NCBI RefSeq assembly: GCF_964275005.1
Contig: NC_092692.1
Location: 13,709,584 to 13,773,583, forward strand
DNA length: 64,000 nucleotides
Origin: Diadema setosum
Taxonomy: Eukaryota > Echinodermata > Echinoidea > Diadematoida > Diadematidae
Reading direction: 5' to 3'
The translations under genes were made by a program, and so were the position numbers. The notes under the pieces are model-generated. The model did not search any database. It saw only the letters and a list, made by a program, of their open reading frames with translations, and had not been told where the DNA came from. Below, one piece after another: positions 13,001 through 60,519 of the stretch; the first letter of the stretch is position 1, and each line of letters opens with the position of its first letter.

Positions 13001-16000
13001 AGACAGTACATATTGGCAACTCGGAAGCACCGTACACGATTTCCTGTCACGGGTCAGTGGATTTAGCCGGAGCTAAACTCATTCATTCATTCATTCATTT
13101 ATTTTCCATTCATTTATTTTTCACTCATTTATTTTGCACTCGCGTACCTTTTATACTGAAGTTAGCTCGGACCTGAAGCTGACCTGATCCACCCCCCTAG
13201 AGCGGACTAACTTTAACTCGGGCTAACTGTTTTTCGACCTTTTATGCTGAGAGTTAGCTCGCTTCAGGTCCGCACCTGAAGCGAGCTAACGCTGAGTCTT
13301 GATATATACATGTATTACCCAATAGAGATTCTGTGGGAAGTTTCTTGACCAAAAGGTCAAAGGTCAAAAGCTCAAAGGTCAAGTGAAAGTGCCAAATTTC
13401 ACTTCATCCTTGGTATCTCAAAGTATCATCAGGAAACTTAGTACAGTACATATTTATGCATGTTCTACCTGACAGTGATGCTCTGAGGAATTTTAGGATA
13501 ATACGGTCACAGGTCAAGGGTCAAGGGCTGGGTTGAAATGCTGAAGAATTTACTTTTCAATACTGAAATTGTACTTTTTCTTCATACCTTGAAAATTACT
13601 CACATGCATAAAGTTATAAAAGGGTTAAAGTCAAGTAAAAATCTTCAAATCCCAAAATACCTGCACTCTTAGACAGTATAGCCATTCATCCAATTAAACC
13701 TAGTTAAATGAAAGTGAACATTCAACACATATGAGACGCACCTCTCATTTTGATATTTTGCCAGTTATGTGAAACTATCATCACACATTGTCAAGACATT
13801 GTATTATAGACCTATTAGGACAACCATGTATTATGTCAGAGGCATACCAGTCACCATAGCAACATTTCTAGTTGTTAATAAACTAATGGGAGAGCATTAA
13901 GGTCATAACATCATCACCTCTTCATACATGTATTTGTACGTCTGTGCAACCAATACATGTACCAGCTATGAAAACATGTGACTCTGTAAAATTCCATGTA
14001 TTTGTGATTTCATACATTTTTCATCAAACTGCTGAGACTTCTGACAGGCCTTCTGTGTACCCTTTGAGTGCATTGCTTTGCGTTTGCAGGTGTTGGACGG
14101 GAAGGGAGCGCCAACGTTGTGGTCCAGTACCAGCATGAGATCAATCTGCTGAAGCAAGCCACTTCAGAAACGATCATTAAGTGCCACCTGTAAGTTTGAC
14201 AGCTTGTTTAATAATGACTCACTTATATTGCAACTGATTGACATGTTGCCCCATGTCAGCATAGATAAACATTGACCATTCAGTGTTTGCATAGTAGACA
14301 TGATTAAAAAAAGGAAAACCATGGGCAAGATGCTCAAATGGGGCTTGAACCCCTGACTTAACAAATGTTATATTTTTATAGATTCCTCTCATCTGATTGG
14401 TTAAAAGTGGAGTCATGAAAATAGCTGTGCCCCATTTTTGATCAAAATGACATCATGATTTACTGTGCCCGGGGCATAGAATCAACTGTGCCCTGTAAAT
14501 AGGTTTGGGGACAGTCGCAACCCCGTACACATAGATCACTCATATGTACGCACCAATGATACGACCGCCGCACTGTTGATCAGCGTTGATTACGAGTGCT
14601 GTAAAAGAGACTAGAATCTATATTTTCGGTATCTATATTTCGGAATCTATATTTTCGGTATATAAAACAAATAATGACAGCTTGATATTCGGGGCACAGT
14701 TAGAATTATGTAGGCCCTCGGTAATGTGAAAACCATAAAATGCCCTCAGCTTCGCTTCGGGCATAGTTATGGTTTTCACATCACCTCGGGCCCATAATTG
14801 TCCCCGCCGAACGAGTTCGAGCAGGGGACTATGAAACGGGCTCCGTACGTGTGTGTGTCCGTGTGTCCGTCCGTCCGTCCGTGTGTCCGTCCGTGTGTCC
14901 GTCCGTGTGTCCGTGTGTGCGTCCGTGTGTGATCAAAATCTTCAATTTGCTACTTCTCTGTCATTTATGAGCCAATTTTGATTCTGTTTGCTTTATATGA
15001 TAGCACTACATGGGAGCTTTGAAACTTGTACACAGAATTTCAGTCGTGACCTTTGACCTTGACCTTTGACCTATATTGTACATTTTGCTACAAAATGCTA
15101 CTCCTTCGCCATTTCTAACCCGATTTCGATTCCGTTTGCTTTATGTGATGGCACTAGGTGAGGGCTTCAAAACTTCTACACAGAATTTTGACCTTTGACT
15201 TCTTTGACCTTTGACCTTGATTTTTTGACCTATATTGTACATTTTGCTACAAAATGCTACTCCTTCGCCATTTCTAACCCGATTTCGATTCCGTTTGCTT
15301 TATGTGATAGCACTAGGTGAGGGCTTCAAAACTTCTACACAGAATTTTGACCTTTGACTTCTTTGACCTTTGACCTTGATTTTTGACCTATATTGTACAT
15401 GTTGCTACGAAATGCTACTCCTTCGCCATTTTTAACCCGATTTCGATTCCGTTTGCTTTATATGATGGCACTAGTTGAGGGCTTCAAAACTTCTACACAG
15501 AATTTTGACCTTTGACTTCTTTGACCTTTGACCTTGATTTTTGACCTATATTGTGCATTTTGCTACAGAATGCTACTCCTTCGCCATTTCTAACCCGATT
15601 TCGATTCCGTTTGCTTTATGTGATAGCACTAGGTGAGGGCTTCAAAACTTCTACACAGAATTTTGACCTTTGTCTTCTTTGACCTTTGACCTTGATTTTT
15701 GACCTATTTTGTACATTGGCTACAAAATGCTACTCCTTCGCCATTTCTAACCCAATTTCGATTCCGTTTGCTTTATGTGATAGCACTAGGTGAGGGCTTC
15801 AAAACTTCTACACAGAATTTTGACCTTTGACTTCTTTGACCTTTGACCTTGATTTTTTACCTATATTGCACATTTTGTTACAAAATGCTACTTCCGGCGG
15901 GGACATATGTTACGCACCGCGTAATTTCTACTTTTCCTTGTTTTAACTGTGCCCCTCATAGCAGTCATTATTTGTACACTAGACAGGCTTCATATCCACT

Positions 16001-28954: not shown

Positions 28955-29110
28955 CGCTTAGACCATTTTGCAATCAAACTTCATATGGTGAATGTGTTAC
29001 GACAAAACAAACTATGTTTGAGGGTGAGCGTGACGAGCGGAGCAAGAGATTTTCTTTGTCGCAATAACAAAGTGGAAATTTCTGTCCCTTTTCCCACTTG
29101 CATGAATAAT
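28955..29110. repeat. Direct repeat flanking the TGTCCCCGCCG copy, left arm
   Basis: GAATGTGTTACGACAAAACA...GTGAGCGTGACGAGCGGAGC...CTGTCCCTTTTCCCACTTG is repeated at 30330-30490 on the other side of the inserted elements. It is about 80% identical by eye. Confidence 0.6.
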
Positions 29111-29183
29111 TGTCCCCGCCGAACGAGTTCGAGCAGGGGACTATGAAACGGGCTCCGTACGTGTGTGTGTCCGTGTGTCCGTC

Positions 29184-29214
<31 letters not shown>

Positions 29215-30025
29215 GTGTCCGTGTGTGATCAAAATGTTCAATTTGCTACTTCTCTGTCATTTATGAGCCAATTTTGATTCTGTTTTCTTTATATGATAGC
29301 ACTACATGTGAGCTTTGAAACTTCTACACAGAATTTCAGTTGTGACCTTTGACCTTGACCTTTGACCTATATTGTACATTTTGCTGCAAAATGCTACTCC
29401 TTCGCCATTTCTAACCCGATTTCGATTCCGTGTGCTTTATGTGATGTTACTAGGTGAGGGCTTCAAAACTTCTACACAGAATTTTGACCTTTGACCTTGA
29501 TTTTTGACCTGCATTGTACATTTTGCTACAAAATGCTACTCCTTTGCCATTTCTAACCCAATTTCATTTCCGTTTGCTTTATGTGATGGAACTACAGTCT
29601 GTAGGTGAGGGCTTCAAAACTTCTACACAGAATTTTGACCCTGGACTTCTTTGACCTCGATTTTTGACCTATATTGTACATTGGCTACAAAATGCTCCTC
29701 CTTTGCCATTTCTAACCCGATTTCGATTCCGTTTTCTTTATGTGATGGCACTAAGTGAGGGCTTCAAAACTTCTACACAGAATTTTGGCCTTTGACTTCT
29801 TTGACCTTGATTTTTGACCTATATTGTACATTGGCTACAAAATGCTACTCCTTCGCCATTTCTATCAAAACCCGATTTCGATTCCGTTTGCTTTTTGTGA
29901 TGGCACTAGGTGAGGGCTTCAAAACTTCTACACAGAATTTTGACCTTTGACTTCTTTGACCTTTGACCTTGATTTTTTACCGATATTGTACATTTTGCTA
30001 CTAAATGCTACTTCCGGCGGGGACA
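29111..30025 (+). mobile_element. TGTCCCCGCCG transposon, copy 2
   Basis: Same ends, (GTCC)n tract and about 158-bp units as the copy at 14799, with about five units that are more diverged and partly shortened. The following TTACGCACCGCGTAATTTCT is again shared. Confidence 0.8.
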
Positions 30026-30490: not shown

Positions 30491-30510
30491 TGGACTCCGG
30501 GTAATTTAGT

Positions 30511-30692
30511 ATACAAATGATGCACAGGATAGAGTGTGTTAGTGAAGGTGCGGCGCGCTCGAGAGTATTGACAATGGTGCGACATGCACGAGGCGCAGCC
30601 GAGTGCATGTTTGCAACCGTTGTCAATACTCGAGAGAGCGCCGCACCTTCACTAACGCCACGAAATAATCCTGTGCATCATTTGTTTTATAA
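30511..30692. mobile_element. Fold-back element with GCA triloop tip
   Basis: The arms start CAAATGATGCACAGGAT and end CCTGTGCATCATTTG and are about 75 bp long. The tip at 30586-30606 reads GCAC-GA-GGC-GCA-GCC-GA-GTGC. It ends next to TTTATAAAATGGGT, a motif seen at the edges of neighbouring fold-backs. Confidence 0.8.
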
Positions 30693-31185
30693 AATGGGTC
30701 GACAACTAACAGCATTATTCACGTACCTTTGTGGGACAATACCAGTCAGCTACATGTAGCACTCGCTCAAAAGTCAAGATGTCCGAAGATGTTCGTCCCA
30801 AACATTTACGCACTCGGAAATCCCGCACATAAGTACTGTACGTACGTATAAGAGTATACGTACGCCACGTACTGTTATGCACAAGAAAGGCCGCCGGCTG
30901 TTGTGGCAGCCCGCGGCCCGAACTAGAAGTTGTTTACAGGATTGACAGCGCGTATAGTAGCGCGTGACGCACTTGTAACAACTGATTGAGTGCGCACTGC
31001 TAGTGTAAACATTGTGACGTACGTCAGGCCAGGGAGGTGGAAGAGAGACTCTTCTTAGTGCATACCTGAAGAAATTAATGCACGCACACGTGACTCATTT
31101 CAGCGCTTCCAATTGGCTACATTCTTGAACCCATTTTATAATGCAGTTTATGCTTGCTCTGCTTGATTGTAGAGATGATAATAAT
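30693..31185. other. Spacer between inverted ATAAAATGGGT motifs
   Basis: TTTATAAAATGGGT (about 30687) and ACCCATTTTATAA (about 31130) face each other. This may therefore be the interior of a larger fold-back. It includes GTACGTACGTATAAGAGTATACGTACG-like small palindromes near 30840. No gene is visible. Confidence 0.4.
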
Positions 31186-31328
31186 TATATTGGATGGCCT
31201 TGATTCATGGAATACCAGGGAATATTGCACTCGTTAGGGCCAATATTGCACTCATCTTCGATTCGTGCAATATTGGCCCTAACTCGTGCAATATTCCACG
31301 GTATCCCATTCATAGCCATCCAATATAA
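31186..31328. mobile_element. Fold-back element with GAA triloop tip (minus strand)
   Basis: The arms TATATTGGATGGCC...GGCCATCCAATATA are about 60 bp. On the minus strand the tip at 31248-31268 reads GCAC-GA-ATC-GAA-GAT-GA-GTGC. Confidence 0.8.
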
Positions 31329-31331
31329 TAT

Positions 31332-31485
31332 AAATATTCAATGTTTATGAGTGCGACGGTTCCGAATATTATATGAGCGTGCAAGTTTAACCGTTCTATT
31401 CAACAACGCGAAGCGGAGTTGAATAGAATGGTTAAACTTGTACCGAATGTAATATTCGGTACGAATGATAAACATTGAATATTTG
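31332..31485. mobile_element. Fold-back element with GAA triloop tip (plus strand)
   Basis: The arms AAATATTCAATGTTTATG...CATTGAATATTT are about 70 bp. The tip at 31399-31423 reads TTCAAC-AA-CGC-GAA-GCG-GA-GTTGAA. The 2x2 internal loop is therefore AA/GA and not GA/GA. Confidence 0.8.
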
Positions 31486-32177
31486 TTTTATACAACACAT
31501 GATATCGAAATATTTAGGCATGGCCCACAGTTTGGACCAAAAATAGATATGTTTTAACCCTAAATAGGTAGATCGAGAACTACGTATGCGAAAGCCTACG
31601 CCTAACGTTAGGCCAACTAGCGTACTGCCACTGGCTCGATCTCTGGTAGGCCCCCTAGGTCTTGAAAAAGGTCTAACTAAACCCTATATAGCTAGGTCTA
31701 GAGAGTTTGCTTACCTCTATTTAAAGCATACTGTATTTGATCACTTTCTTAGTATTTGTTGCTGCATTTCACTCATGATTAGCAATGCGCTGAGATCCTC
31801 ATCAGAGACGAGAACAAAGCTCGGGTGAAAAGAGGTAGGTCTACGTAGCCATGATATTAAACGTAGTGGCATGGCCGTGCGACGTGCGTAGGTGACCGGT
31901 GGTGGTATGGTACACATAAACGGTTGTTGCGTGCTGGCGCAGCGTAAACCCTACGGGTGTGCGTATGCATCAATTCCAGCTAGCTGTACGATACACATTC
32001 GCAAGTTCAGTGTGTCCTAGGGTCTATTGCACTGCCGGCTCGCTTGTACCGTTCAATAGTCTTGCACTGCCATTGAGTGTGAGCGTTGGATAGCCGATTC
32101 CTCTGAATGTCATGTGACCAGCATTTATCCAATCAGATGGCAAGATTCCATACATGTGTTGTATAAATAAATACTGT
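31486..32177. other. Intergenic, no gene seen
   Basis: No coding sequence is supported. It is moderately CpG-rich, with TAGGTCTA-type repeats and phrases such as GCATTTATCCAATCAGATGG that resemble fold-back edges. Confidence 0.35.
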
Positions 32178-33882
32178 TATAGAATGGGTAGCGAGAATCC
32201 TGCGATCTGATTGGTCGAGAGCTATGTGTTCATTTTTACTGGCCGCAAGCTGAGTCACAGTGGTAAACATCAAAGACGCTTAACTAATTATCTCTACTAT
32301 CTTTGGTAAACATGTTATCGCGCACTTAGCAAGTGCTTCGAGTGCTGATTAGCCCAGAAAATCATCTACAGTTCTGTCCAAGGTCTCTTGCACAGAAGGG
32401 GTTAAGAAGCAGGTGTGGTCATTGTTGGTTCAGTCAAAAGAGATTATAGAATGGGTAGCGAGAATCCTGCGATCTGATTGGTCGAGAGCTATGTGTTCAT
32501 TTTTACTGGCCGCACGCTGAGTCACAGTGGTAAACATGTTATCGCGCACTTAGCGATAGTACGCGTGTACACTTGTAACAAAGGTTCGCGCACTAAAGCA
32601 AGCGTTCGCGCACTCACCTTGGCCATGCATCCAGTAAAACTGATGCATGGCCATAGTATACAAATGATGCACAGGTCTGAGTCACCGAACTAAAACATAG
32701 TGGAATGCGTGTCCCTATTCCCAACATACACGAGACCGTGCAGCCAAATTACCGTCTTGCGTCGCCATCTTGTTCAGGCAATTTTTCTTTATATGGAGTG
32801 CACGCTTAGGCGCGGTCAGACTGGGCCACTGGTACGCGCGCAAGCAAGAGTACGTCGTCCAGTGGCTAGTGATTATGACGTAACAATGCACGTTTGTACA
32901 AATTTTGGTCAATTGCGCTTCGGAGACACAGCCCGCACTCCATATAAGGAAAAATTGCCCGAACAAAATGGTGGTGGTAGCAAGTTTTGGTGGCTGCGTA
33001 TTTCCTGGGTGAACACGCATTCCACTATGTTTTAGTTCGGTGGTCTGAGTGCGTCAGTCGGAATTGTGTGCATTAGGTAACTATGGAATGCTTAACCCAC
33101 GAGGCGAAGCCGAGTGGGTTTAGGCTAAATTCCATAGTTACCGCATGCACACTATATTCCGACTGACGCACAAAAGACATGTGCGTCATTTGATTTATAG
33201 AATGGGTAATTTTCTTGTCAAAAACCCAGTTTTCTATCGTGTTACCCGATGACAAAATTACTGGATGCATTTCCTTTTGGCTTGCCGTAAAGGGCATGCA
33301 TACCCGTACTTACCGTTTACTGGATGCATGGCCAGCCATGCATCAGTTTTTACTGGATGCATGGCCAAGCTGAGTGCGCGAACGCTTGCTTTAGTGCGCG
33401 AACCTTTGTTACAAGTACGCGTACTATTGCTAAGTGCGCGATAACATGTTTACCACTGTGACTCAGCGTGCGGCCAGTAAAAATGAACACATAGCTCTCG
33501 ACCAATCAGATCGCAGGATTCTCGCTACCCATTCTATAAAGCTCAATAATACAGCTCTATGTGTATGGCTGGCCATGCATCCAGTAAAAACGCCATGCAT
33601 CCAGTAAAAACGGTAAGCATGGGTATGCATGCCCGTTTACGGCAAGCCAAAAGGAAATGCATCCAGTAATTTTGTCATCGGGTAACACGATAGAAAAATG
33701 GGTTTTTGACAAGAAAATTACCCATTCTATAAATCAGATGACGCACATGTCTTTCGTGCGTCAGTCGGAATATAGTGTGCATGCGGTAACTATGGAATTT
33801 AGCCTCGTGGGTTAAGCATTCCATAGTTACCTTATGCACACAATTCCGACTGACGCACTCAGACCTGTGCGTCATTTGAATA
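32178..33882. repeat. Cluster of interleaved fold-back elements
   Basis: The inverted pairs are A 32443-32650 with A' 33330-33541 (edge TTATAGAATGGGTAGCGAG), C 32675-32812 with C' 32925-33050, and B 33049-33325 with B' 33575-33882. The order is A, C, C', B, A', B', so A/A' and B/B' interlock. B itself is also a hairpin (33049-33171) with tip CCCAC-GA-GGC-GAA-GCC-GA-GTGGG at 33096-33118. In B' the corresponding tip is deleted. A direct copy of the A edge lies at 32178-32250. The phrase CCATGCATCCAGTAAAA recurs several times. Confidence 0.75.
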
Positions 33883-34078
33883 ATATGGAATACATACATA
33901 ATTATAGATCACGTCAGAAAGAAAACATAAAATGTTCATCTGTTTGTGATTTCTCGCCTTGAATACAGAAAACTAGAAAAGGAAAGGAAAAGAAACATTT
34001 AGTTTCTCTCCCATTTGCAAATTTACAAGGTTTTTTTCTTCACAAAAGGAGAATTATTTTTAAATGGCCTTCTTTCTC

Positions 34079-34735: not shown

Positions 34736-35610
34736 TCAGCACAGACACACACACAGACACACACACACACACACACACACACGCAACCGTTTTCGTCACT
34801 CGCGCGGGCAAGTGAGGGACTAATGCCCGATGTGAGCATATTAAATGTCCCCGTTCGTTTTATTCAATATATACCCATAACATGGCCATGTAATGTGCTC
34901 TGCTAGGGGGCAATGCAAAAAGAAGAAGAAGAAGATTCAAGGATAGGTAAAAAATATATATATATATATCACTTTCAGTCAAAAAAGAAAGACGTACAGG
35001 ATGTACAACGTGTTAGTTCACTCAGTGTGGGCATACAACCATACTTAAAAACACCAACAGATGTAATGTTTACGTCAGAAGTGGGACATTTTTTGCGTGC
35101 TGGATCGTTAGAGAATGGACTGTGTCTGCCCCCCCCCCCCCCCCCCCCCAACCACCACCATCGCATACCGCTGCCAACCTCGCAGGTCCTGATGCGTACT
35201 TCACATTTGCATTGCCTTTCGAATAATCCATGATTTCATATAGTCACCTGGATTCCCAAGTATCAACTTTGTGTGTGTGTGTGTGTGTGAGAGAGAGTGG
35301 TTGGGATGGTACGTTTACAATCGAGCTTTCAAGGATTTATGTTAATGATAGAGTCTTGATACATGCATTGAATCATTAAGGAGACCTCCCGGTGATTTTC
35401 AGGCTTTTACATTTGAACAACTATAAATTAGTTAAACTAATTAGTTACATTCTACAAGAATCTTCAGCCTATTGAAGGAGGCAGACTTAACCAGAAGAAG
35501 AAAAAAACTGAGTACAGATTTTCAGAATTCATAGTGATTGGGATAAGGAATGAGAAATTAGAATGTTTTCAAATTGCAATGAACAAGGATGATGGCTTGG
35601 CGGTTCGGTG

Positions 35611-35830
35611 TAAAAATGGCAGAGGTAAAAATGGCAGGGGTAAAAATGGCAGAGGTAAAAATGGCAGAGGTAAAAATGGCAGGGGTAAAAATGGCAGAGG
35701 TAAAAATGGCAGAGGTAAAAATGGCAGGGGTAAAAATGGCAGGGGTAAAAATGGCAGAGGTAAAAATGGCAGAGGTAAAAATGGCAGAGGTAAAAATGGC
35801 AGAGGTAAAAATGGCAGGGGTAAAAATGGC
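35611..35830 (+). repeat. 15-bp minisatellite TAAAAATGGCAGRGG, 14 units
   Basis: Fourteen exact-length 15-bp units vary only at one A/G site (GCAGAGG or GCAGGGG). A 15-mer keeps frame, so both strands show long artefactual repetitive frames (GKNGR and others). A 15-bp period without unique spacers excludes a CRISPR-like array. Confidence 0.95.
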
Positions 35831-36104
35831 CCATTTTTTCCTGGTCTCCCCTATTTTACTTTCCTGCATTTTTTTTTTCTCCCGGATACCCTCTGCGTTT
35901 TAATGGCAAGGACCAAACGTCCCACCCAGCCGCCAACGTCTCTAAACTATTGCAAATGGAGCATGTACAAAAATTGCCAGTATGAAAACTGCAATCCTTC
36001 ACGACCAGTAGGGCTTACGTACATGTACAAAATATTCCCCCTCGTTTTCCTCACTTAAACAGGTAGAATGCATATCGCCTCACCTGACCTCTTTCAGTGG
36101 TTTA

Positions 36105-37619: not shown

Positions 37620-37861
37620 TTTTCCCATAGGCCTACTAGGCTCTTAGCTGGTTTATTATTCCTCTGAACGGACAGATTACGCCACTGCACTTGAACCAAA
37701 CTCAGAATAATGAGAGTGCTGTAATCTTTTTAAAACATAATTCAATAAATATTCTTCAAACCTGCAGTTGGAATTTGATAATTCGATACAGTTTGCTCTG
37801 GCTAGGTTATCAATCAAAACTTCTTCATACGTTTATCTCTGACGAAATCTCTCTCATTAAT

Positions 37862-38150
37862 TCTGCCAGTTTTACCTCTGCCATTATTACCTCTGCCATT
37901 TTTACCTCTGCCATTTTTACCGCTGACATTATTACCTCTGCCATTTTTACCTCTGCCATTTTTACCTCTGCCATTTTCACCTCTGCCATTTTTACCCCTG
38001 CCATTTTTACCCCTGCCATTTTTACCTCTGCCATTTTTATCTCTGCCATTTTTACCTCTGCCATTTTTACCTCTGCCATTTTTACCCCTGCCATTTTTAC
38101 CTCTGCCATTTTTACCTGTGCCATTTTTACCCCTGCCATTTTTACCTGGC
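37862..38150 (-). repeat. 15-bp minisatellite in opposite orientation, about 19 units
   Basis: Units of TCTGCCATTTTTACC are the exact complement of the unit at 35611. They show more variants (ATTATTACC, GCTGACATT, TTTATC), suggesting an older or differently homogenised array. Confidence 0.95.
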
Positions 38151-39003
38151 ACCGGCTTGGCAGGGTCACCATAAGAATGCATGAGTTGGGGCTAAAGGAA
38201 GCAGCAGAAAAGAAGAAGACATGCATAGATTAAACCCACGTGAACTCGCAGGCAAGCGGTAATGTAATGGAATTTTCGGTATCGCCAATACCTAGGTGCC
38301 GTGCACAGAGCAGCGTCTTAGATGCATTATGGGATAGCTCACGGGACCAAACTTGCCCCGGTTTTGGCTGCACATGCACTCAGATCACGCTCTATCTTTA
38401 TCCAGATGTATTTTTTTTTTTTTGGAAGATTTCTTCGCTTTCCATCATGTGACCAGCACATTGAAGCCTTGCAGTAGTGAACCATGACTCTAGTGACCGC
38501 AAATAAGTAAAACTTAGATGTTGAACGTCCAACTCTTTTAAGCTGAATTATAGGCAAGAAAACAGGGTAACACGGAAAAGGAGACAAATAACTTCATTGA
38601 ATCGTAATAGCTGCGACTCGCGTGAGACAACCGGAAGCGAACAAGGGCACCGAGGAATCTCAAAGAGCATCTGTGACAGAGCTCTTTTCTGCGAATTGGC
38701 GATACCGAGAATTACACTGCTACATTTCTGAAATATATGAGCCTCCAATGTCATCATCCTTGTTCAGTGTAATCTGCTTAAGGTTTTTCAGAATATGGTT
38801 TCTTTGCTCAAGAACCATGATAAATTCCACAAATCTATCCATGGAGCTGTTGATTTATGTACTACATGACGTGAAATTATGAAAATCGTCTGGAATGCCC
38901 CTTTAGGGATACATTGTAGAAATATGTTGAACATCGAGGAGCTTTAACGTAGTAACTTGTTTTATGTTGCTTTTTATTCGTACTATAATGGCCTTTATCT
39001 CAA

Positions 39004-58762: not shown

Positions 58763-59641
58763 TTACTTTTTAGACGCTTTCGTCGAGGCAGCATTTTTGG
58801 CTTTCTTCTTCGGTGACTGATTACTGGCGGAAGGCTTACCGTCCTTTTTAGCAGACACTTTCTTCGGTTTGGTCTTTGCCTGCGGGGAACGCTTGGATGC
58901 GGCAGCTTTCTTACCAGGTGATTTGGGCGTCGCTTTCTTCGCCGGCGACTTCGATGTCGATCGCTTGTTGGCTTTCGCCCTCTTGGCTTGCTCCATCTTG
59001 GATTTCACGACTGCCGACTTCAATTTGCTGGGGATTGGCGAGTGCGATTTGCTGCGTCGGATGAGTTTGGATTTGCTGGCCTTAGCTTTTGGCGTGGCGG
59101 TTGCACTCGCTGACCGTGGACGCGGAGCCGCCTTGGTCGTCCGCCCAGACTTCCCGCCTTTCTTCTGGCTCTTCGTCGGTCTATCCTCCTCGTTGTTCCC
59201 GTCCGACGCGTCGCTGTAGTCAAACACGTCCTGATCGCTCTGTTTTCGCTCCTTCTTGGCTGGCGATTTAGGGCGTTTCTTTGTCGTGGCGGCCTTTTTC
59301 TTCGCGGCTTTCTTTGCGGGCGGCTTCGGAGGTTTTCCGAGCTTGTAGCGGCCGGTCAGCGTGCCCATTCCTTCTGACTTTTTTGGCCGGACGATGATCC
59401 CGGACGCGACACCTTTTGTGATGGCCATTTTGAGCTGACCTTTCAGTCGCGCCTGGTCAATTTCTGGATAGGTCTGCATTATCCACTGCTTCAAAGCTAT
59501 CACAGATGCACCTTTCTTTTCATCCAGCTGTTTGATGGCGTCGACCACCATATCGATATATTTTGGATGCGTGGGAGCCGCCCGCACAGATTTCTTGACG
59601 ACCCCATGGTCCCCATTTAGAAGTACACCATCCTCAGCCAT
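58763..59641 (-). CDS. Linker histone H1-like protein, 292 aa, intronless
   Basis: The three-part H1 layout is clear: a short N-terminal tail (1-24), a winged-helix globular domain (about 25-102, from THPKYIDMVVDAIKQLDEKK to GTLTGRYKLG), and a long Lys/Ala/Ser/Pro-rich tail (103-292). The tail has repeated SPxK motifs (SPAKK at 126 and 232, SPGKK at 241, SPKKK at 276), likely CDK sites. It binds linker DNA and nucleosomes in the nucleus. Residues about 136-155 form an unusual acidic, aromatic-containing insert (DVFDYSDASDGNNEED). No histone stem-loop was seen after the stop, and an AATAAA follows within about 15 bp. This suggests a polyadenylated, replication-independent variant. ATG 59641 has A at -3 and G at +4; a longer in-frame start upstream is unlikely to be used. 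Which H1 class it belongs to cannot be said. Confidence 0.92.
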   Translation of the reverse strand: MAEDGVLLNGDHGVVKKSVRAAPTHPKYIDMVVDAIKQLDEKKGASVIALKQWIMQTYPEIDQARLKGQLKMAITKGVASGIIVRPKKSEGMGTLTGRYKLGKPPKPPAKKAAKKKAATTKKRPKSPAKKERKQSDQDVFDYSDASDGNNEEDRPTKSQKKGGKSGRTTKAAPRPRSASATATPKAKASKSKLIRRSKSHSPIPSKLKSAVVKSKMEQAKRAKANKRSTSKSPAKKATPKSPGKKAAASKRSPQAKTKPKKVSAKKDGKPSASNQSPKKKAKNAASTKASKK

Positions 59642-59707
59642 TTTTCCCCGAAAGTAGGTAACCTTGTGAGCTTGGAACTGTCGTGTATGCAGGACCCAGC
59701 TGCAGTG

Positions 59708-59722
59708 CATGAAATATAATAG
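59708..59722 (-). promoter_or_regulatory. Possible TATA-like element of the H1 gene
   Basis: The minus strand reads CTATTATATTTCATG about 75-85 bp upstream of the ATG. Position and composition fit a core promoter, but this is weak evidence in AT-rich DNA. Confidence 0.3.
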
Positions 59723-60519
59723 TCCGTTCAGCACTTCTTCAACAAATACTCACTATCCCTTTCACACAAATTTGGATGTTTCCATCTCCAGCACTGTTGC
59801 TTTCCTGGTAAGGTCCCGACAAGTCTGTAATTTTGCCAAGGAAAGAAACTTTTTGCAACTCCACACGAATCTGACGAGAACGGGCTACAGTGAATCAGAA
59901 TACTGCGTTGTTTGTCGGCTCAATCTGGGGTGCCACTCCTTGTTTCGAGAGGTAAACGACGAACACAGAAGAGTCGATTATCAGTGCAACTGCACTGTGA
60001 GAATACTTTTTCTTTCACCCACCATAAGCATAGTAATAGGACCCCCGTTTACGGCGCCACTTTCCCCGCATTGTTTGCATTTTTGGGGTGTCGCCAGGTG
60101 CACCATCATTCCCTCTACTTTTCATTTTGGCGCTATTATACACGCACTGTGAGGTCTTTCCGAATGACACAGTGACAGTGCATGGATAAACATGAACACA
60201 AACACGCATAATCGCCTATTATTCACACTTTAAAGAAAGTAGCCCTTACAGTGAAGGGAAACTCAAACATACGTGTGCAGTGAATCAAGCAGCCATGATT
60301 TTACTAGTACTTTCCACCTTTTTTTAGGTAAATCCTTCCAAACGTCACTGAATATACACACATCTAATCCCAGTTTAGCTTCTAGAACGAGCTGCAAAAG
60401 ATTTTTTTTTTCAGAAGTGAAGTGAATGAAAACAACAATATTAGTGCACTTAGAAACATCCGTATTAAGCGCCTTATAAATGTATTGTATTACCGTTATT
60501 ATTATTAGTGGATCATGTC
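59723..60519. other. 5' flank of H1, no gene seen
   Basis: A 147-codon plus-strand frame starting at 59709 overlaps the presumed promoter and has no domain I recognise. CATTATTATTA tracts lie near 60500. Confidence 0.35.

What the first reader, a model, noticed from the sequence alone, without database searches (positions are those of the whole stretch)
30511..33171. Five unrelated-sequence fold-backs share one hairpin-tip structure
Seen: fold-backs at 14740-14764 (minus), 30586-30606 (plus), 31248-31268 (minus), 31399-31423 (plus) and 33096-33118 (plus) all close in the same way. A long stem is interrupted by a 2x2 purine-purine mismatch (GA opposite GA in four, AA opposite GA in one), then exactly three Watson-Crick pairs, then a GAA or GCA triloop. 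The pattern is GA-NNC-GNA-GNN-GA (NNC is GGC, GGC, CGC, AGC, ATC). Stem sequences differ. Known: GNA triloops closed by C-G (as in GCGAAGC) and tandem sheared G.A pairs are exceptionally stable in single-stranded DNA. Inference: the structure, not the sequence, is under selection, perhaps for recognition or processing of an extruded or single-stranded hairpin during mobilisation. This could define a structural superfamily of fold-back elements.
Basis: partly seen in the sequence, partly recalled or inferred. Interest (0 to 1): 0.85.

Follow-up and report, generated by a model that had tools for sequence, protein, structure and literature searches.

The report
Transposon-end hairpins with one tip
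A sea urchin genome carries well over a thousand copies of a small mobile DNA whose one end can fold into a long hairpin; the hairpin's sides differ between families while its tip and mismatched bubbles stay much the same, as if the folded shape matters.

Summary
All five tips are real. The window is sea urchin DNA, most likely Diadema setosum. Four of the five fold-backs (14.7k, 30.5k, 31.4k, 33.1k) are one END of a roughly 0.5-0.85 kb non-coding mobile element with a shared far end, CCAAT...TATAA. A tip-blind search on the termini finds 1,635 such ends (backwards control 2); one tip 15-mer occurs 928 times (control 0). Families with different arms keep a layout: GNA triloop closed by C-G, 3 (sometimes 5) pairs, tandem GA/GA, ~25-28 bp, a second GA/GA or A-rich bubble, ~25 bp, a third GA-rich bubble, ~19 bp. 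Tip stems covary. So shape is kept over sequence, but mainly within one element superfamily plus one looser relative (31.2k), not by convergence of unrelated fold-backs. The layout resembles Helentron/DINE-1 rolling-circle elements, and in the Helitron Helraiser the hairpin stem is exchangeable and the loop region is not (passages). Membership is not shown: 0 of 6 Rep sites lie near such an end, the hairpin is too long, and the GA strand is the wrong one. New variant of a known kind; mechanism inferred.

The parts
30510..31141 (+). Element E1 (family A'): TATAC + hairpin 30513-30685 + TTATAAAATGGGT (30687-30699) + core + far end ACCCATTTTATAA (31129-31141)
   Evidence: coordinates counted on the sequence
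30590..30602 (+). E1 tip GA-GGC-GCA-GCC-GA; second GA/GA bubble at 30561-30562 opposite 30632-30633
14368..14806 (-). Element E2: hairpin at its 5' end, whose lower left arm is lost against another repeat; far end CCAATCAGATGAGAGGAATCTATAAAAATATAA at 14400-14368
   Evidence: intact 5' halves of its family
14746..14758 (-). E2 tip GA-AGC-GAA-GCT-GA; second GA/GA 26-27 bp below
31330..32166 (+). Element E4: hairpin about 31330-31488, TTATACAAC..., far end CCAATCAGATGGCAAGATTC...TGTTGTATAA (32129-32166); left boundary approximate
31405..31417 (+). E4 tip AA-CGC-GAA-GCG-GA; second bubble GA/GA about 27 bp below
32657..33539 (+). Element E5 (family B) carrying a nested insertion (32682-33043); left repeat TTATAGAATGGGT 33195-33207, far end ACCCATTCTATAA 33527-33539
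33101..33113 (+). E5 tip GA-GGC-GAA-GCC-GA; second bubble is TA/GC, not GA/GA
33720..33885 (-). E6: inverted second copy of the E5 hairpin with the tip deleted (about 20 nt lost between GGC repeats)
31184..31337 (-). Hairpin E3: tip GA-ATC-GAA-GAT-GA (31252-31264) and a second GA/GA 19 bp below, but other termini; looser relative, like L043

Best explanation
The fold-backs are one terminus of a large superfamily of non-autonomous mobile elements in a sea urchin genome. Shown: element anatomy (TATAC + ~165-173-nt hairpin + 12-13-nt repeat starting TTATA + core + inverted copy of that repeat at the far end), copy number, families with different arms but a like tip and bubble layout, covariation. 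Inferred: the hairpin is read as a folded single strand by the mobilising enzyme, most likely as the end or termination signal of a rolling-circle, Helentron-like transposase. The enzyme would read the tip (C-G-closed GNA triloop, stacked tandem G.A pairs) and perhaps the lower bubbles; the arms only have to pair, so they drift and are kept matched by arm-to-arm correction.
For: Abrupt host/TATAC border, far end and internal inverted repeat in 14 genome copies plus E1 and E4; 1,635 tip-blind termini, control 2; 25 of 30 exact-tip loci have a folded stem of 40 or more pairs; bubble layout; tip covariation, closing C-G in 10 of 10 chosen rows; arms covary in family A, 0 of 500 shuffles; head-to-tail copies joined end to start in L027; Helentron/DINE-1 layout of subterminal repeats and end stem-loop with species-specific stems (PMC2374699, PMC4067079, passages); Helraiser hairpin: stem exchange ~90% activity, loop change like deletion (PMC4778049, passages); Helitron_like_N matches in this genome, 49, of which 21 in open frames of 3,276-3,517 aa.
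Against: 0 of 6 Rep sites on C1 and C2 has an exact-tip hairpin within 20 kb. Hairpin length and repeat-to-end distance exceed the reported Helentron ranges. In Helentron orientation the hairpin strand carries TC/TC bubbles, the GA form being its complement. DNA energies favour the GA strand by only 1.5-5.8 kcal/mol in 7 hairpins and disfavour it by 6.8 in L043. The second bubble is not always GA/GA (B: AA/GC; E5: TA/GC; J and printed copies of the E2 family: AA/GA). Families B and C show no two-sided arm changes. Loop and bubble specificity over the genome could not be counted.
Confidence: 0.45

Rival explanations
1. No function of the tip: all families descend from one hairpin, arms are homogenised by correction in the extruded hairpin, and tandem sheared G.A pairs survive because repair does not see them.
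For: Four of five window fold-backs share element ends; arms covary in family A; the lower-bubble motif (G/A)AGGTGA recurs in many families, a sign of descent.
Against: Other mismatches and bulges persist in the same arms, so correction is not so complete that only G.A tandems remain; GA/GA keeps like distances while arms were replaced; E3, with other ends, has it too.
Confidence: 0.25
2. The selected structure is an RNA hairpin (transcribed element, processed or recognised as RNA).
For: Tandem G.A pairs are stable in RNA too (recalled); RNA energies favour the GA strand by 6.6-18.2 kcal/mol in 7 of 8 hairpins.
Against: L043 goes the other way by 11.3; C-G-closed GNA triloops are typical of DNA while RNA would favour four-base loops (recalled); no Rfam family matches in the window or five loci. 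No transcript data seen.
Confidence: 0.12
3. A cut-and-paste element (MITE) with terminal inverted repeats next to which a hairpin was captured.
For: 12-13-nt inverted repeats flank the core.
Against: In the complete copies listed the left repeat is internal: the hairpin lies outside it and abuts host DNA; no target-site duplication seen by eye in 14 copies.
Confidence: 0.13
4. The tip is a scar of self-primed snap-back synthesis: an ultra-stable mini-hairpin at a 3' end primed copying of the arm.
For: Pol theta extends stem-loops from two terminal pairs (PMC11292364, abstract and passages); mismatches sit beside the tip.
Against: Lower bubbles at set distances and shared element ends are not explained.
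Confidence: 0.05

Closest known systems
Helentrons and their non-autonomous HINEs (DINE-1/INE-1; sea urchin Tsp elements were grouped with them)
   Same: Non-coding, 12-15-nt repeats with one copy terminal and one internal, a stem-loop at the end beyond the internal copy whose stem differs between species, no target-site duplication (passages).
   Different: Hairpin ~165-173 nt with ~70 pairs instead of a 5-11 bp stem; internal repeat ~175 nt from the end instead of 38-60; GA form on the opposite strand; no linked Rep protein.
Helitrons (Helraiser)
   Same: Terminal hairpin as termination signal with exchangeable stem and sensitive loop region (passages); head-to-tail arrays are known.
   Different: No 5'-TC/CTRR-3' ends; inverted repeats present; hairpin far longer.
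attC sites of integrons and IS200/IS605 ends (recalled)
   Same: Works-like comparison only: folded single strand with helix defects recognised rather than sequence.
   Different: Prokaryotic; short hairpins; no relation tested.
Extraordinarily stable DNA mini-hairpin d(GCGAAGC)
   Same: GAA triloop closed by C-G; title of the 1994 paper seen in a reference list.
   Different: A fold of oligonucleotides; here it is the end of a natural repeat family, with GCA loops and several stems.

Membership tests
Helentron / HINE | 12-15-nt subterminal inverted repeats, one at or near an end, one internal | tested here: met
   TTATARAATGGGT / ACCCATTYTATAA (A, B), TTATACAACACC / GGTGTTGTATAA (C)
Helentron / HINE | short palindrome (5-10 bp) near the end, internal repeat 38-60 bp from that end (values reported for mite elements) | tested here: not met
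   palindrome present but ~70 pairs; repeat ~175 nt from the end (values)
Helentron / HINE | insertion at TT without target-site duplication | tested here: inconclusive
   no duplication seen by eye in 14 copies; empty-site search among held DNA found none
Helentron / HINE | autonomous partner with Rep/helicase sharing the ends | tested here: inconclusive
   49 Helitron_like_N matches exist; 0 of 6 sites on C1-C2 near an exact-tip hairpin; their ends could not be read
Helitron (canonical) | 5'-TC ... CTRR-3' ends, no inverted repeats | tested here: not met
   ends are TATAC and TATAA with inverted repeats
TIR transposon / MITE | terminal inverted repeats at both ends with target-site duplication | tested here: not met
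   left repeat internal to the hairpin, no duplication seen
Mini-hairpin with tandem sheared G.A (structure) | C-G closing pair, G-N-A loop, 5'-GA-3' opposite 5'-GA-3' | tested here: met
   sequence and covariation
Mini-hairpin with tandem sheared G.A (structure) | sheared pairing geometry and high melting point | not testable with these tools
   needs NMR or melting

The most novel reading that the evidence does not exclude
An animal transposon superfamily whose end is recognised by the shape of a folded single DNA strand: a C-G-closed GNA triloop plus tandem G.A bubbles at about 3, 32 and 58 bp from the loop, with arm sequence free to change. A eukaryotic counterpart of attC/IS608-type structural recognition with a three-point ruler.
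Probability: 0.3. Interest if true: 0.85.

Novelty: new variant of a known kind. Interest (0 to 1): 0.6.

Why it matters
If shape is what is read, more than a thousand natural copies with exchanged arms are a ready-made experiment on what a transposase sees in a DNA hairpin, and a natural use of one of the most stable small DNA folds known. It also gives a sequence-independent handle on the large unclassified repeat share of urchin genomes (25.87% in a published D. setosum assembly; PMC11066563, passages).

Tried and rejected
Rejected: chance; a tip common to fold-backs in general; five unrelated elements; Rfam families (window; five loci). Led nowhere: empty-site search among held DNA (15 elements, no empty site; the one candidate, L027, is a head-to-tail copy); open frames around the hairpins (six read by eye, none recognised, not scanned against families); substitutions at the second bubble (family A 0 of 48, family C 2 of 20, uninformative); first loose hairpin survey (output cut, not used). 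Not obtained: genome counts for loops, bubbles and stems (CGAGGCNNNGCCGAG and CGAGGCGNAGCCGAG asked repeatedly; CNNGGCGAAGCCNNG and CGANNCGAAGNNGAG asked once each), because the genome search was busy.

Selections before counts: one search uses 10 chosen tips (families with a 3-bp stem, two rows for the E2 family; the 5-bp families and decayed copies left out). One search leaves out L007, L020, L012 (A) and L006, L014, L021, L015 (C) as truncated or rearranged. One search printed letters for 19 of 1,064 hits: 9 of 19 tips intact, 10 decayed, deleted or unrelated. Families were sorted by eye from about 100 printed 80-base left arms of 1,635 hits; for some of them (F, K, M) the tip was not reached by the printed letters. 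L001-L030 were chosen by the exact tip. A note said that all five share an ATTTGTTTTATA flank; for 31.2k that is wrong (its downstream TTATAAAATGGGT belongs to E1's far end) and is not used.

Full report
SETTING. The window is animal DNA rich in repeats. A receptor frame at 49670-51100 matches a Diadema setosum protein with 100% identity over 46% of the query. The assembly held as G000 has 912,680,840 bases in 102 contigs; the window is C8:13709584-13773583.

THE OBSERVATION. A scan for triloop, three pairs, 2x2 mismatch and six outer pairs gives six places in the window, five of them these, and one place in 200 kb of genome sample; 20 Markov copies of the 264 kb give 28 hits, none with GA/GA and GNA together. 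The 13-letter motif without fold-back is not in excess in the window. The 15-mer CGAGGCGAAGCCGAG occurs 928 times in the genome, read backwards 0. In the first 30 of these loci the folded stem has 40 or more pairs in 25 of 30 (in L023 the tip itself folds otherwise).

NOT A PROPERTY OF ALL FOLD-BACKS. In 20 evenly placed 10-kb stretches, 1 of 7 fold-backs with score 29 or more carries the tip (L043, with a mismatch beside the bubble); in the window 5 of 7 do, and a sixth (E6) is a tip-deleted copy (low-complexity fold-backs were removed first).

WHAT THE FOLD-BACKS ARE. In the aligned genome loci host DNA ends at TATAC, then come the hairpin, a conserved stretch (TTTTATARAATGGGT in families A and B; TTTTATACAACACC in C), a core, and an end that repeats that stretch inverted (ACCCATTYTATAA; GGTGTTGTATAA). 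Fourteen complete copies among L001-L030 are 518-832 nt long. A, B and C share the far end (CCAAT...ATTCT...TATAA) and core motifs, by eye, but not hairpin arms. In the window 30.5k, 14.7k, 31.4k and 33.1k have this far end. The hairpin at 31.2k has the tip and a second GA/GA but other ends; L043 resembles it. So four of the five are one element superfamily and the fifth is a looser relative.

HOW MANY AND HOW DIVERSE. A search on the termini, blind to tip and arms (TATACAAAT, 140-168 bases, ATTTGWTTTATA), finds 830 + 805 = 1,635 places, backwards control 1 + 1. By eye about 100 printed left arms fall into about a dozen families, among them those of 14.7k and 31.4k; the printed copies of the latter have GA where the window copy has AA. 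A second tip-blind search from the lower bubble (AGGTGA...) finds 547 + 517, control 4 + 4. Of 19 printed matches 9 have an intact tip, with stems GGC, AGC, GAC and, in two families, GGGGC/GCCCC (five pairs) under a GCA loop; 10 are decayed, deleted or unrelated.

SHAPE KEPT, SEQUENCE NOT. Counting from the loop: A and E1 3, GA/GA, 27, GA/GA, 27, AGA/GAAATA, 18; C 3, GA/GA, 27-28, GA/GA, 24, GA/GA, 19; B 3, GA/GA, 25, AA/GC, 25, GA/GAAA, 19; E2 3, GA/GA, 26-27, GA/GA (lower part lost); E3 3, GA/GA, 19, GA/GA; E4 3, AA/GA, 27, GA/GA. L043 lacks a clean second GA/GA. In J and the printed E2-family copies the second bubble reads AA/GA. Ten chosen tips: 97.9% of 96 cells paired (shuffles 66.3%), two-sided change in 8 of 10 pairs, covariation 0.738 (shuffles 0.179); the closing C-G pair never varies. 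In family A the arms change on both sides in 13 cells (shuffle mean 3.96, 0 of 500 reach it); B and C show none. In a palindrome covariation can come from arm-to-arm correction, so it does not by itself prove selection. The stronger point is that GA bubbles stay at like distances while the paired arms around them were replaced.

HOW IT MAY WORK. A hairpin end outside an internal repeat, the terminal copy of that repeat at the far end, no duplication seen by eye, and copies joined end to start (L027) is the layout described for Helentrons and HINEs/DINE-1 (PMC2374699, PMC4067079; passages). In the related Helitron Helraiser the hairpin terminates transposition; exchanging its stem leaves ~90% activity, changing loop and loop base acts like deleting it (PMC4778049; passages). 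That is what one expects of a hairpin whose arms drift and whose tip is kept. Rolling-circle transposase domains are present in this genome: 49 matches, 21 in open frames of 3,276-3,517 aa.

AGAINST THAT. None of 6 Rep sites on C1 and C2 has an exact-tip hairpin within 20 kb; other families may differ, and the ends of these elements could not be read. Hairpin size and spacing lie outside reported Helentron ranges. In Helentron orientation the hairpin strand has TC/TC bubbles, the GA form being its complement. DNA energies favour the GA strand by 1.5-5.8 kcal/mol in 7 hairpins and oppose it by 6.8 in L043. I call it Helentron-like and do not file it as a Helentron.

RIVALS. Descent plus repair-blind G.A tandems needs no function; it is weakened by other mismatches that persist in the same arms and by the like positions of the bubbles. 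An RNA structure is possible; three-base GNA turns are more typical of DNA (recalled) and no Rfam family matches. Self-primed snap-back synthesis (PMC11292364, abstract and passages) explains a mismatch beside the tip, not the lower bubbles. A cut-and-paste MITE does not explain a repeat that lies inside the hairpin.

NOVELTY. Searches of an open-access library (listings only) showed no paper on GNA/GA-tandem tips in transposon hairpins; most subscription papers are not in it. The layout is a variant of a known kind; the conserved shape is the new part.

Noticed in passing
32682-33043: Nested fold-back insertion inside E5, flanked by TCTGAG on both sides (32676-32681 and 33044-33049), with inverted ends TCACCGAACTAAAACATAGTGG.../...CCACTATGTTTTAGTTCGGTGG; no GA tip.
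   Followed up: partly
L027:1032-1595 (minus): Two family-A copies head to tail with the junction TATAA|TATAC and no spacer; the first lost tip, right arm and left repeat by an internal deletion. C1:40021337 and 40021942 lie 605 bases apart on the same strand and may be another such pair.
   Followed up: partly
L018: A rarer family with two hairpins in inverted orientation, one toward each end, both with the GGC GAA-type tip (one reads GGCGAAGCCGAG).
   Followed up: no
G000, 49 places: Helitron_like_N domains, 21 of 49 in uninterrupted frames of 3,276-3,517 aa: the urchin seems to hold many intact rolling-circle transposase genes.
   Followed up: no
29103-30020 and from 14795: Another repeat starting near TGTCCCCGCCGAACGAGTTCGAGCAGGGGAC with CCGTSTGT and TGACCTTTGACCTTGA arrays; one copy truncates E2.
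   Followed up: no
35565-35879 and 37814-38191: Two tandem arrays whose frames read as GRGKN repeats, on opposite strands.
   Followed up: no
58763-59749 (minus): Open frame of 328 aa that looks like a linker histone H1 (lysine/alanine-rich tail; by eye, recalled).
   Followed up: no
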